Assembly: GCA_030667105.1 (NCBI GenBank)
Contig: DAOUWN010000019.1
Location: 1 to 13,352 of the forward strand
Origin: Deltaproteobacteria bacterium
Lineage (GTDB): Bacteria; Desulfobacterota; Desulfobacteria; C00003060
Direction: 5' to 3'
Length of the DNA stretch: 13,352 nucleotides
Program-made: the position numbers and the translations under genes
The notes under the pieces: model-generated
The model's input: only the letters and a program-made list of their open reading frames with translations
Databases searched by the model: none
What the model was told of the DNA's origin: nothing
Shown here: in pieces, positions 6,001 through 12,199 of the stretch
How positions within the stretch are numbered: the first letter of the stretch is position 1
Layout: every line of letters starts with the position of its first letter

Positions 6001-6915
6001 CTAATGACTAATAAACATTTCCAGAATTGCTTTGTGCATGTGGAGCTTGTTTTCTGCTTGATCCCACACAACCGAATGAGGCCCTTCCAGTACGTCGGCG
6101 GTAATCTCCTCACCCCTGTGAGCAGGCAGACAGTGCATGACTATGACATCTTTTTTGGCCAGGGCCACCAGGGCCTGGTCCACCTGATAGGGCTTGAAGG
6201 CTTTTTTCCGATTGGCTGATTCGCTTTCTTGGCCCATACTGGCCCAGACATCCGTATAGATCACGTCCGCATCACGAACGGCCTCTTTAGGATCAGAAAA
6301 GACGACTATACGGCCAGTCGTGTCCTTCCTCGCAGGCCCCAAAATCTCCTCCTTGGGATGGTAACCTTCGGGGCACGCAAGAACCAGGTCAGTACCCAGG
6401 ATGGCTGATGCGTTCAACCATGAATGGGCCACATTGTTACCGTCTCCTACCCAGACAATCTTGAGCCCCTCCAGACTGCCCTTTTTTTCCAATATTGTCA
6501 TAAGGTCACTCAATATCTGGCATGGATGGTAAAGATCGGTTAGTGCGTTGATCACAGAGATAGAGGCCCTGGCTGCCAATTTTTGAAGCAAATCCTGGGA
6601 ATATGTTCGAACGACCAGGCCATCAAGATACCTGGAGAGAACACGGGCCGTGTCTGCAATAGGCTCGTTTCGAATCAGTTGGGTATCCCTGGCACTCAAA
6701 AACAAGGAGGTCCCACCCAGCTGAATCATGGCCGCCTCAAAGGAGACCCGGGTTCGAGTCGATGCCTTGTCGAAGATGAGCCCAAGGGTCTTGCCCTGAA
6801 GCGGTCGATCCGGAACTCCTTTGCCGTGCCGTCCTTTCAGTTCAAAAGACCGCACAAACAACGCCTCAAAATCACTAGCGCTCAAATCTCTGAGGGTTAA
6901 GAGGTCCTTTTTCAT
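6001..6915 (-). CDS. argF: Ornithine carbamoyltransferase
   Basis: ArgF transfers the carbamoyl group of carbamoyl phosphate to ornithine, giving citrulline; these enzymes are usually cytoplasmic trimers. The 304-residue product has the carbamoyl-phosphate motif STRTR (52-56), HPCQ (130-133), the nucleotide-fold-like stretch [12 protein letters not shown], the ornithine-loop SMG (226-228), and [10 protein letters not shown] (261-270) with the catalytic cysteine. HCLP together with SMG marks an ornithine rather than an aspartate transcarbamoylase. The ATG at 6915 overlaps the argD stop as ATGA and has AAGGA upstream; the longer open frame to 6966 would overlap argD by 55 nt and is not needed. 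The stop TAG lies in a TATTAGT-CATTAGT heptamer pair, so the last codons may derive from the spacer repeat. Confidence 0.96.
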
Positions 6916-8126
6916 TCTTGTTCCTTGGGCTGATCGGAGAGACGCTGAAATACCGAATCCAGGCACGCAATTAGCGCGTCAATATCTTTTTCCTGAATGA
7001 TCAGCGGCGGGATGAATCGCAAGACATGCCCCTGGGCGCAGTTAATCAGAAAACCCCGTTCCATACAGCTCTTGACGACAGGCATGCCGTCGCAGGTAAG
7101 ATCCGCGCCAATCAAGAGCCCCTCTCCTCGAACTTCACGGATAAAGGCGTATCTGGCTTTAAGGCTCAGGAGTTGATCCTTGAAATATTGGCCAACCCCT
7201 TGACAGTTTTCAAGGACACCTTCATTCAGAAGCGCCTTGGCTACCTCAATGGCTGCAGTGGCAACCAAGGGCGTTCCACCAAAGGTCGAGGCATGAGCCC
7301 CCGGAGTAAAGGCCTTCGCCACGTCCTCTTTGGCCAGCATTGCCCCCATGGGAAGCCCGTTGGCTAAGGCTTTCGCCAGGGTCATAATGTCGGGTGTCAG
7401 GGCAAAGCGCTCATAGGCGAAGAGCTTTCCGGTCCGCCCCATGCCGGTTTGTACTTCATCAAAGATGAGGAGCAGGCCTTCTCTGTCACAAAGCTCGCGC
7501 AGTCCTTCCAGATACCCCTGGACAGGGCACTTGACCCCACCTTCTCCCTGGATGGGTTCCAGCATGACCGCACATGTCTCCCTGGAAACAGCGTTCCGGA
7601 CAGCCTCAAGATCGTTAAAGGGGACAATGTCAAACCCATCCGGAAGGGGTTCAAAGCCCTTCTTGATCTTGGCCTGACCAGTGGCCGCAAGAGTTGCCAT
7701 GGTTCGACCATGAAAGGAGTCTTCCATGGTTATGATCCTGAACCGTTGAGGGGCTCCGCTGTCATGGAAATACTTCCGTGTCAGCTTGATGGCTGCTTCA
7801 TTTGCCTCAGCGCCGCTGTTGCAGAAAAAAACCCTGTCGGCAAAGGAATGTTCAACCAGCCATTCGGCCAACTCGGTTTGCGGCTCAGTGTAGTACAGGT
7901 TTGAAACATGCACTAAACGACGCGCCTGCTCTGCCACGGCCTTGGCAATTCCTTCATGGGCATGCCCCAGATTGCACACTGCAATGCCGGCAACAAAGTC
8001 GGTATAGGTGCGACCTTCTATATCTCTAAGCATGCATCCCTTGCCCTCTGTGAGCACAACAGGAAACCGGCTGTAGGTAGCTGCAATGGCGCGGTCTGCT
8101 CTCTTTATGGTTTGGTCACTTGTCAT
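6912..8126 (-). CDS. argD: Acetylornithine aminotransferase
   Basis: ArgD is a class III PLP aminotransferase that converts N-acetylglutamate semialdehyde to N-acetylornithine using glutamate. Homologues often also act on N-succinyl-DAP semialdehyde; with dapL present that side activity may not be needed. The product is 404 residues from the ATG at 8126. It shows FVAGIAVCNLGHAH, NSGAEANE (103-110) for phosphate binding, SFHGRT, the PLP-ring aspartate Asp223 in FDEVQTG, and the Schiff-base lysine Lys252 in TLAKALANGLPMGAM. The frame is open to 8222, but the extra 32 residues cross a GC-rich hairpin and do not resemble the family, so I excluded them. No clear ribosome site precedes the ATG, which lies in a repeat, so the start is less certain than the rest. 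Confidence 0.94.
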   Translation of the reverse strand: MTSDQTIKRADRAIAATYSRFPVVLTEGKGCMLRDIEGRTYTDFVAGIAVCNLGHAHEGIAKAVAEQARRLVHVSNLYYTEPQTELAEWLVEHSFADRVFFCNSGAEANEAAIKLTRKYFHDSGAPQRFRIITMEDSFHGRTMATLAATGQAKIKKGFEPLPDGFDIVPFNDLEAVRNAVSRETCAVMLEPIQGEGGVKCPVQGYLEGLRELCDREGLLLIFDEVQTGMGRTGKLFAYERFALTPDIMTLAKALANGLPMGAMLAKEDVAKAFTPGAHASTFGGTPLVATAAIEVAKALLNEGVLENCQGVGQYFKDQLLSLKARYAFIREVRGEGLLIGADLTCDGMPVVKSCMERGFLINCAQGHVLRFIPPLIIQEKDIDALIACLDSVFQRLSDQPKEQE

Positions 8127-8139
8127 TGGTACAAACAAT
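8122..8139. repeat. 18-nt direct repeat, copy 2 (overlaps argD start)
   Basis: Identical to 353-370 and in the same orientation. The argD ATG (8126-8124) lies inside it. On the minus strand it continues as heptamers ACCAATG, ACAAGTG, ACCAAAC, so the first argD codons are written in the spacer repeat. Confidence 0.8.
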
Positions 8140-8176
8140 GATGCCCGATACCTGATATTCTCCATTGACACTCGGT

Positions 8177-8205
8177 ACCCGCCTGCCAAGCCCCGGCGGG
8201 CAGGT
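8177..8205. repeat. GC-rich REP-like hairpin in the argB-argD spacer
   Basis: ACCCGCCTGCC, loop AAGCCCC, GGCGGGCAGGT: an 11-position stem with nine Watson-Crick pairs. On the minus strand it also has one G-T wobble and one mismatch. No T tract follows on the minus strand, so it is not an intrinsic terminator. CCTGCCCGCC-type palindromes are common dispersed repeats in bacterial genomes. It could slow RNA decay or partly insulate argD from argB. Confidence 0.65.
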
Positions 8206-8259
8206 CCGGTATCAAGCGTCATGCGCTAGAGATAATGTAGCTGTTCACAACACCAATGA

Positions 8260-9135
8260 CTAACCGCGAATCTCTGTTCCTATCCCCTTGTCTGTGAAAA
8301 GCTCAAGGAGCACGGCATGGGGATTGCGACCATCGATGATGTGAACCCTTTTGACCCCTTTTTCAACGGCCTCCAAGGCGCATTGAATCTTCGGGATCAT
8401 GCCGCCGGAAACAGTCCCGTGCTTAAGGAGCTTTTGCGCTGCCTCGGCCTTCAGAGAGGACATCAGTGCTTCCTGCTCATCCATGACACCCTCAACGTCT
8501 GTGAGCAGGATCAGCTTGATCGCATTGAGGGCCACGGCAAGCTTGCTGGCCACCCAGTCGGCATTGATGTTATAGGTTTCTCCCGTCTCCCCTGTCCCGA
8601 TCGGAGCAATGACAGGAATAAAGCCGCCGGCCTCCAGGGTGTCTATGATTTTAGGATTTACGCTAACAACCTCGCCCACCATGCCGATGTCTATGATTTC
8701 AGGGGGCTTCTCTTCCACCTGTGACCGAACAAGGTGGAGCTTCCTGGCAAGAATCAGGTCCCCGTCCTTGCCACTTAAGCCCACAGCCTTGCCCCCCTGT
8801 TGACCGATTTGAGCCACGATCTCCTTATTGACCTTGCCCCCGAGCACCATTTCGACAACATCCATGGTAGGTTCATCCGTAATGCGCATGCCATCTACAA
8901 AGCGAGACCTGATCCCCATCTTGTCCAAGACCGATCCGATCTGCGGACCTCCGCCGTGGACCACTATTGGATGAAGGCCTATGTATTTCATCAGGGTGAT
9001 GTCTTGGGCAAAGTCCTCCTGAAGACGCTCATCCACCATGGCGTGGCCGCCGTATTTGATGACGATCCTCTTTCCGTAAAAACGGCGGATGTAAGGAAGG
9101 GCTTCAATCAGTATGTCGGCAATATTGCTAGTCAT
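8260..9135 (-). CDS. argB: Acetylglutamate kinase, arginine-sensitive type
   Basis: ArgB phosphorylates N-acetylglutamate with ATP, the second step of arginine synthesis, and belongs to the amino acid kinase family. The 291-residue product has KYGG (27-30), HGGGPQIG (60-67) and GGMIPKI (244-250) with the catalytic lysine near the C-terminus. About 20 residues ([19 protein letters not shown]) precede the first strand. This N-terminal helix is typical of hexameric, arginine-inhibited kinases and absent from the E. coli enzyme. The C-terminal [17 protein letters not shown] matches the effector-site region. Feedback inhibition by arginine is therefore predicted. The ATG is the last unit of a heptamer array filling the 45-nt gap after hslU, with no clear ribosome site. 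The stop is TAG, running into GGTTAGT-CATTGGT. Confidence 0.96.
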
Positions 9136-9181
9136 CGGCCATCAGTCATTGGTGATCTATCATCGGGCATCCGGCATTGCT
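9133..9181. repeat. Seven-unit degenerate heptamer array
   Basis: Read on the plus strand the units are CATCGGC, CATCAGT, CATTGGT, GATCTAT, CATCGGG, CATCCGG, CATTGCT, a continuous 7-base period with rough consensus CATYRGK. The array fills the hslU-argB gap exactly, providing the argB ATG at one end and the last base of the hslU stop at the other. Confidence 0.75.
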
Positions 9182-10554
9182 TAGAGGATATATCGGCTCA
9201 GATCCTCATCCTCCACGATGTCTTGCAGTTTTTCATACACATACTTGGCATCAATTACTATCCGTTGTTCGGCGACATCCGGCGCATCAAACAGGATCTC
9301 ATCCAGAAGCCGTTCGATTACCGTATGGAGCCTCCTTGCCCCGATGTTTTCAGTCCTTGCATTGACCTCTGTGGCGATCTCTGCGATGGCAGAAATAGCA
9401 TCGTTTTCAAACACCAAATCTATCCCCTCGGTCTTGAGCAAGGCCCTGTACTGAAGCACGAGGGCATTCTTAGGCTCGGACAGGATCCTGACGAATTCTT
9501 CTTTGCCCAGGGATTTTAGTTCCACCCTGATCGGAAAGCGACCCTGCAGTTCCGGAACCAAGTCAGAGGGCTTGGTCGTGTGAAAGGCCCCGGAGGCAAT
9601 GAAAAGAATATGGTCTGTCTTTACCATGCCATACTTGGTGGTCACCGTGCATCCTTCAACAATGGGGAGGAGGTCGCGCTGTACTCCCTCCCTTGAAACA
9701 TCCGGCCCGTGTCCACCCTCTCTCCCTGTGATCTTGTCGATCTCATCAAGAAAGATAATGCCGGTCTGTTCAACCTTTGTGATTGCCTGCTTGACCACCT
9801 TGTCCATGTCCACCAGTCGTTGAGCTTCCTCCTGCGTGAGAATCTCAATGGCTTCCGGAACCTTTTCTTTCCGTTTTTTTGTTCTTTTCGGAAACATACC
9901 GCCAAGCATGTCCTTAAAATTAATATCCATCTCCTCAAGCCCAGCGCTGGAAAATATTTCCACTACAGGCATGGCCCGTTCAGCCACTTCAAGATCCACA
10001 TAACGATTGTCAAGCTTGCCGTCATGTAACATTTTTCGGATTTTTTCGCGGGTTGACACAGGCTCTGTGGCGTCTTTCCTGACCAACTCCAAGGTCTTCT
10101 CTTCGCTTTCAATCTCCTCAGTGGACTTGGAGGCCTTTTTCGGCGGGAGAAGGATGTCGAGCATTCGTTCCTCGGCGATGGCTTGAGCCGTTACCTTGAC
10201 CGCTTCTCGCTCGTCAGATTTTACCATATTGACGGCTAGCTCTGTCAGATCGCGAATCATGGACTCCACATCGCGACCCACATATCCCACCTCGGTAAAC
10301 TTGGAGGCCTCAATTTTCAAAAAAGGCGAATCAGCCAAGCGCGCCAAACGTCTTGCAATCTCGGTCTTACCAACGCCTGTGGGACCGATAAGGATGATAT
10401 TTTTTGGGGCTATCTCATCACGCAAGTCCTCGGGAACCTGCTGGCGCCGCCATCGATTCCTAAGGGCAATGGCCACAGATCGCTTAGCATCCTTCTGGCT
10501 TATGATGTACTTGTCTAGCGCTGCTACTATCTCCCGTGGCGTAAGTTTTTTCAT
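9181..10554 (-). CDS. hslU: ATP-dependent protease ATPase subunit HslU (ClpY)
   Basis: HslU is an AAA+ unfoldase whose hexamers cap HslV and feed unfolded substrates into it. The 457-residue product has Walker A GPTGVGKT (57-64), the pore loop GYVGRD (90-95), an intermediate I domain (about 110-245) rich in charged residues, Walker [11 protein letters not shown] (from 267), the GRFPIRVEL arginine-finger region (338-346) and GARRLHTV for sensor 2 (406-413). It ends DEDLSRYIL; this extreme C-terminus inserts between HslV subunits to activate the peptidase and is intact. The ATG overlaps the hslV stop as ATGA, with GGAG nearby, so the two subunits are translationally coupled. It is followed by argB after a 45-nt repeat spacer. 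Confidence 0.97.
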
Positions 10555-11103: not shown

Positions 11104-12003
11104 CTATCGCCTGGGGTGTGCCTTGTCGTAGACCTCCATCAGCCTGTCGATACTCACGTGGGTATATCTTTGAGTAGTAGACAAGCTCGCATGGCCTAAC
11201 AGCTATTGCACCATACGGAGATCTGTCCCGGCATCAAGCATATGGGTGGCAAAGGTGTGGCGGAGTCCGTGGGGGGTGATAGGCCGCAACAGTCCCAGTT
11301 GCCGGACTACCTTGTCAAGGAGTCGCCCGACTGAACGGGAGCTCAAACGCCCGCCCAGCCTGTTCAAAAACAAGGGCGCGCTGTCCGAGTCACACATTGT
11401 CTCTCCCCGGTTTCTCCTATCCAGATAGACCCGCATACAACGTAGCGCTTTCTTTCCCACAGGGGCGAGGCGCTCCTTGTTCCCTTTACCCAGAACCCGG
11501 ACCATCCCCCTGTCAAAGTCAACATCCTGTATGTCCATCCCCACCAGTTCACCCACTCGCAACCCTGTGGAATAGAGTGTTTCAAGGATCGCCCTGTTGC
11601 GCAGAGCAAGGACCGAATTCCCTTGGACGCCGTCCAAGAGACGAAACGCTTCATCAACAGGCAAATAATTCGGCACAGGGCGCCCACGCTTAGGCGTCAG
11701 AACCGTTTCAGCCGGGTTTTTCGTAATCAACCCCTTTTTGACCAGGAATCGAAAAAAGGATCTCAAAGCGGAAAGCTTGCGTGCGATCGTCGTTTTCTTA
11801 TGTCTCTTGTGCAAAAAGCCAAGATAAGAGCGAATCACCAGGCCATCTACCTCATGGACGTCCAGACCTGTTTCGCCCTGGAGCTTTCCGTGGAGATAGG
11901 CTGAAAACTGCTCCAGATCCTTCCGGTAGGCTCGACAGGTGTGAGGCGAAAAATCCTTTTCGACTGACAGCATTTCAACAAATGTGTCGATCCACACTGT
12001 CAT
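11104..12003 (-). pseudogene. xerC: Tyrosine recombinase XerC, interrupted by an in-frame TAG
   Basis: XerC-type recombinases resolve chromosome dimers at dif together with a partner. The reading frame runs for 266 codons to a TAG at 11205-11203, then continues in the same frame for 32 codons to a second TAG at 11106-11104. The first part has the SAM-like N-terminal domain and catalytic Arg149 (STGLRVGEL), Lys173 (LGKGNKER) and His245-Arg248 (HGLRHTF). The part after the stop reads [17 protein letters not shown] and contains the last catalytic histidine (His271) and the nucleophile Tyr280. The TAG occupies the position where relatives read Glu (VQELLGH), so one base change explains it. Terminated at TAG, the protein cannot cleave DNA. 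Read-through, sequencing error or true decay are all possible. The total of 299 codons is normal. It is followed by hslV after ten bases. Confidence 0.85.
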
Positions 12004-12101: not shown

Positions 12102-12199
12102 AATAAAATGGGACGATTAGGGAGAATTAAGGTAAGTTCTCAATAACCTTCATTACCCCGGCGCTTATGGCAACCGCGTTGCCCGGACTTTTTGAGAAA

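What the first reader, a model, noticed from the sequence alone, without database searches (positions are those of the whole stretch)
11104..12003. xerC carries an in-frame TAG just before its catalytic His and Tyr
The frame is intact on both sides of TAG (11205-11203), and the downstream 32 codons read [17 protein letters not shown], a well-preserved recombinase C-terminus ending at a second TAG ten bases before hslV. Only the one codon, normally Glu, is wrong. No other decay is visible, so the lesion is recent, is a sequencing error, or the codon is read through. Some anaerobic deltaproteobacteria insert pyrrolysine at UAG, which makes read-through worth testing. Against it, TAG is the ordinary stop of dapF, argF, argB and xerC itself here. 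A truncated protein would keep DNA-binding parts but could not cut DNA.
Basis: partly seen in the sequence, partly recalled or inferred. Interest (0 to 1): 0.75.

Follow-up and report, generated by a model that had tools for sequence, protein, structure and literature searches.

The report
Lone premature stop in xerC
One copy of an ordinary chromosome-maintenance gene carries a single out-of-place stop signal that the relatives examined lack, which is most simply a sequencing error or a fresh mutation and not a new way of reading the genetic code.

Summary
On the minus strand the frame 12003-11104 is a full XerC (300 codons including the final stop), broken only by TAG at 11205-11203, codon 267, before the motif residues His271 and Tyr280. 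The TAG was found in no relative. All 80 loci kept (the best of 218) have Glu there and no internal stop, including a 95%-identical contig, L001, with the same gene order. Of 123 listed related proteins, 120 have Glu. Decoding is poorly supported. TAG ends 4 of 13 window genes and xerC in 32 of 80 relatives, L001 included. The draft genome behind L001 has release factor 1, no pyrrolysyl-tRNA synthetase over the cut-off, and no CTA anticodon among the 25 tRNAs found, an incomplete set. The window's own genome is not held, so reads, pyl genes and a second XerC could not be tested in it. I judge a consensus error or minority-strain base slightly more likely (0.5) than a real, very recent knock-out (0.42). 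Interest is low.

The parts
11104..12003 (-). xerC frame, 300 codons including the final TAG, interrupted once
   Evidence: the 98%-identical intact relative P0002 meets the XerC equivalog cut-off of NCBIfam
11203..11205 (-). in-frame TAG, codon 267; Glu in 80 of 80 related loci kept
11206..12003 (-). 266-aa open part: N-terminal domain and most of the catalytic domain (motif residues Arg149, Lys173, His245, Arg248)
   Evidence: catalytic roles recalled for E. coli XerD
11104..11202 (-). conserved tail beyond the stop: 32 codons with motif residues His271 (11193-11191) and Tyr280 (11166-11164), then the final TAG
   Evidence: no amino-acid change from L001
10551..11093 (-). hslV, next gene, 10 bases after the xerC stop
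   Evidence: gene name recalled, not searched in a family library
9181..10554 (-). hslU, following gene
   Evidence: gene name recalled, not searched in a family library

Best explanation
The TAG is a single wrong base, or a minority-strain base, in the consensus of what is probably a metagenomic contig. The organism most likely carries a normal XerC that pairs with XerD to resolve chromosome dimers. Shown: no relative examined has the stop, and nothing else in the gene is broken. Inferred: that the base is an error and not a real allele, and that the source is a metagenome.
For: Glu in 80 of 80 related loci kept and in all 7 listed proteins that are 96-98% identical. L001, 95% identical over 7.3 kb, reads through intact with the same gene order. 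No amino-acid change in the 32 residues after the stop against L001, though the stretch is short. xerC is under purifying constraint between the two sequences (dN/dS 0.14, second lowest of eight genes). A protein search with the truncated frame listed 120 proteins, none shorter than 289 residues.
Against: The contig does not look error-rich: each of the 13 genes is one open frame apart from this TAG, and polarised amino-acid differences fall equally on the window and L001 (28 against 29, 34 unclear). In xerC alone they fall 3 (the stop included) to 1, with 2 unclear, too few to tell. No reads could be seen. The protein database is clustered at 90% identity, so a truncated copy could be hidden inside a listed cluster.
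Confidence: 0.5

Rival explanations
1. A real and very recent nonsense mutation. The product is a 266-residue XerC without the motif His and the nucleophile Tyr, so it may bind DNA but could not cut. Dimer resolution would fail or rest on other enzymes.
For: The same comparative facts fit. The contig shows no other sign of error. The nearest genome has a separate XerD over its cut-off and four further integrase-family matches; none was shown to replace XerC.
Against: The tail is conserved in the relatives examined and the gene is constrained against L001, and no truncated relative was listed.
Confidence: 0.42
2. UAG is decoded as pyrrolysine or by another dedicated suppressor tRNA, giving a full-length XerC.
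For: A PylS over the cut-off, with a partial PylB-like match beside it that stays under the PylB cut-off, occurs in one related genome, G017. Pyrrolysine use in marine deltaproteobacteria is in print (PMC8318568, passages seen).
Against: No PylS over the cut-off in 16 of 17 related genomes, including the nearest, G001. No CTA anticodon among the 25 tRNAs found in G001, though that set is incomplete and an atypical tRNA could be missed. RF1 present in G001. TAG ends 4 of 13 window genes. 80 of 80 related loci use Glu, so no conserved UAG was found.
Confidence: 0.03
3. Ordinary low-level read-through or near-cognate misreading of UAG supplies a little full-length XerC, enough for its work.
For: Frame and tail are intact; a recombinase may be needed only in small amounts (inference).
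Against: No relative shares the stop, so there is no sign of selection for leakiness; the 63 bases centred on the codon differ from L001 at two bases only, the stop itself being one.
Confidence: 0.04
4. The truncated XerC is a selected form, for example a non-cutting partner or architectural protein.
For: The part left covers most of the aligned XerD sequence.
Against: No related truncated form was listed, and the tail is unchanged from L001 at the amino-acid level.
Confidence: 0.01

Closest known systems
XerC tyrosine recombinase (NCBIfam TIGR02224)
   Same: Full frame, motif residues and hslV-hslU neighbours; the 98%-identical relative P0002 meets the XerC cut-off (335.8 against 335.15 bits).
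   Different: One in-frame TAG; the 266-residue open part alone scores 264.6 bits, under the cut-off.
Pyrrolysine-encoding UAG genes, such as the methylamine methyltransferases (PMC8318568, passages seen)
   Same: An in-frame TAG with a conserved sequence after it.
   Different: There the UAG residue lies in a conserved active site and pyl genes are present; here no relative examined has the UAG and the nearest genome has no PylS over the cut-off.
Ordinary nonsense mutations and consensus errors in draft assemblies (recalled)
   Same: One base change seen in this sequence only, no other decay.
   Different: Nothing found.

Membership tests
XerC (TIGR02224) | score over the curated cut-off | tested here: not met
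   The 266-aa open frame scores 264.6 against 335.15; the intact relative P0002 scores 335.8. The gene is an interrupted xerC, not a working member as it stands.
XerC (TIGR02224) | six catalytic residues in one product | tested here: not met
   Four of the six lie before the TAG; His271 and Tyr280 lie after it. Catalytic roles recalled from E. coli XerD.
Pyrrolysine-decoded gene | pylS in the genome | not testable with these tools
   The window's genome is not held. Proxy: no PylS over the cut-off in the nearest genome, G001, an incomplete draft.
Pyrrolysine-decoded gene | tRNA with CUA anticodon | tested here: inconclusive
   None in the window or among the 25 tRNAs found in G001. ARAGORN was run only on loci that matched the Rfam tRNA model, and seven amino acids (Glu, Phe, Tyr, Cys, Ser, Ile, Asn) have no tRNA in that set.
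Pyrrolysine-decoded gene | UAG conserved at the site in relatives | tested here: not met
   0 of 80 related loci have a stop there.

The most novel reading that the evidence does not exclude
This strain has acquired a UAG-decoding system that its near relative lacks, and makes full-length XerC by suppression at the new UAG.
Probability: 0.03. Interest if true: 0.6.

Novelty: already known. Interest (0 to 1): 0.08.

Why it matters
If the mutation is real, it is a natural case of a bacterium with a non-cutting XerC, of modest use for the question of how chromosome dimers are resolved without it. If it is an error, it is a reminder that lone in-frame stops in draft contigs should be checked against near relatives before recoding is invoked.

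Tried and rejected
Pyrrolysine decoding: PylS was searched in 17 related genomes and PylB in 6. Only G017 has a PylS over the cut-off; 0 of 6 have a PylB over the cut-off, G017 having a partial match (259.9 against 348.2 bits) at a contig end. G001 has neither over the cut-off.

In-frame TAG in prfA of G003 and G005, flagged: looked at and dismissed. Both have an unbroken 361-aa RF1 frame, and the flagged TAG is the triplet directly before the ATG.

An error-rich contig: tested by assigning amino-acid differences between the window and L001 with outgroups L002-L015; they fall 28 to 29, with 34 unclear, so no excess on the window side.

A recurring truncation in relatives: a search with the truncated frame listed 120 proteins; over both protein searches the shortest of the 123 has 289 residues.

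Literature: one search on pyrrolysine/UAG/Desulfobacter/readthrough and one on XerC with premature stop codon. From the first I read passages of one paper; from the second I saw the listing and starts of abstracts only and followed none.

One search used a wrong query (the last protein of a multi-record file) and its codon tally is void; one search is the corrected run. The frame tally counted overlapping loci twice; one search counts distinct frames.

Full report
What is there. The minus-strand frame 12003-11104 encodes XerC. It reads 266 codons, TAG at 11205-11203, 32 further codons and a final TAG ten bases before hslV. Aligned to E. coli XerD (1a0p), the tail holds the last two of the six motif residues, His271 and Tyr280; Arg149, Lys173, His245 and Arg248 lie before the stop (catalytic roles recalled). 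An intact relative, P0002, meets the NCBIfam XerC cut-off by a small margin, while the open part of the window alone does not.

Relatives. A scan of genome contigs gave 218 relatives, of which the tool kept the best 80. All 80 have Glu at the place of the TAG (GAA 50, GAG 30), none has an internal stop in the aligned part, and their xerC genes end in TAG 32, TGA 26 and TAA 22 times. Of the 123 distinct proteins listed in the two protein searches (the best 120 of each), 120 have Glu, two Ser and one Gly. The nearest contig, L001, comes from a draft genome labelled Proteobacteria bacterium C4.bin.21. It is 95% identical over 7.3 kb, has the same gene order (hslV, hslU, argB, argD, argF after xerC) and a Glu codon at the site. 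An hslV match begins within 300 bases downstream of xerC in 35 of 80 loci.

Is the gene decaying? Between window and L001, xerC has dN 0.011 and dS 0.075 (ratio 0.14), second lowest of the eight genes compared; hslV shows 0.10 and the other six 0.18-0.31. Some of those frames, argD and argF above all, are probably read from too early a start, which may inflate their ratios. The stretch after the TAG shows one synonymous change and no amino-acid change; it is only 99 bases long, so this says little by itself. None of the other seven genes compared has a stop difference, and the three indels lie at the start of the listed argD frame (21 bases) and in two intergenic stretches. Amino-acid differences polarised with L002-L015 fall 28 on the window, 29 on L001 and 34 unclear; in xerC alone 3 (the stop included), 1 and 2. 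The window is therefore not visibly more error-prone than L001. The TAG looks new, but age alone does not separate an error from a real mutation.

Is the TAG decoded? TAG ends 4 of 13 window genes (dapF, argF, argB, xerC), TAA 6 and TGA 3. In a sample of stretches from the L001 genome (G001), 12 of 35 distinct stop-to-stop frames of at least 200 codons end in TAG; such frames are not all genes. G001 has an RF1 over its cut-off. Its only match to the PylS model is far below the cut-off (19.2 against 178.15 bits), and weak matches of this kind also occur in the control genomes, 13 of 14 of which ring and only 1 of which is over the cut-off. G001 has no PylB over the cut-off. ARAGORN found no CTA anticodon among the 25 tRNAs at the G001 loci given to it, but tRNAs for seven amino acids are missing there too, and an atypical tRNA could escape the Rfam search that chose those loci. 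One of 17 related genomes, G017 (XerC about 60% identical), has a PylS over the cut-off; its XerC has GAA at this codon and ends in TAG. Pyrrolysine use by marine deltaproteobacteria is in print (PMC8318568; passages seen), and there the methyltransferase UAG residue lies in a conserved active site. A UAG that no examined relative shares has none of that pattern.

Consequences if real. The 266-residue product would lack the motif His and the nucleophile Tyr and could not cut DNA (inference from known XerD chemistry). G001 has a separate XerD and four other integrase-family matches, but XerC and XerD are not known to stand in for each other (recalled). Polar effects on hslV and hslU should be small, since the early stop lies 99 bases before the normal one (inference).

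Verdict. I put a consensus error or minority-strain base at 0.5, a real recent knock-out at 0.42, incidental leakiness at 0.04, decoding at 0.03 and a selected truncated form at 0.01. Without reads, the first two cannot be told apart here. The window's own genome is not held.

Noticed in passing
L083-L085 (G001:C165:645-3080): Three tyrosine-recombinase-family frames in a row on one strand in the nearest genome, resembling the recombinase-in-trio elements known from memory.
   Followed up: no
L087 and L128 (G017:C56): A PylS over the cut-off with a partial PylB-like match beside it, at a contig end, in a related deltaproteobacterial draft genome.
   Followed up: partly
window 9140-9167, near 8121 and near 12141: Indels of 28, 21 and 27 bases between the window and L001. 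The 21-base one lies near the start of the listed argD frame, possibly before the true start, since many relatives align only from about residue 32 on; the other two are intergenic.
   Followed up: partly
window 6095-9135: argF, argD and argB show rather high dN/dS (0.22-0.31) against L001 for biosynthetic genes; over-long frames may explain part of it for argF and argD.
   Followed up: partly
L006: hslV lies downstream of xerC on a 2.4-Mb chromosome record, but no hslU match appeared in the 10 kb held after xerC, unlike the other 13 of the 14 nearest loci.
   Followed up: no
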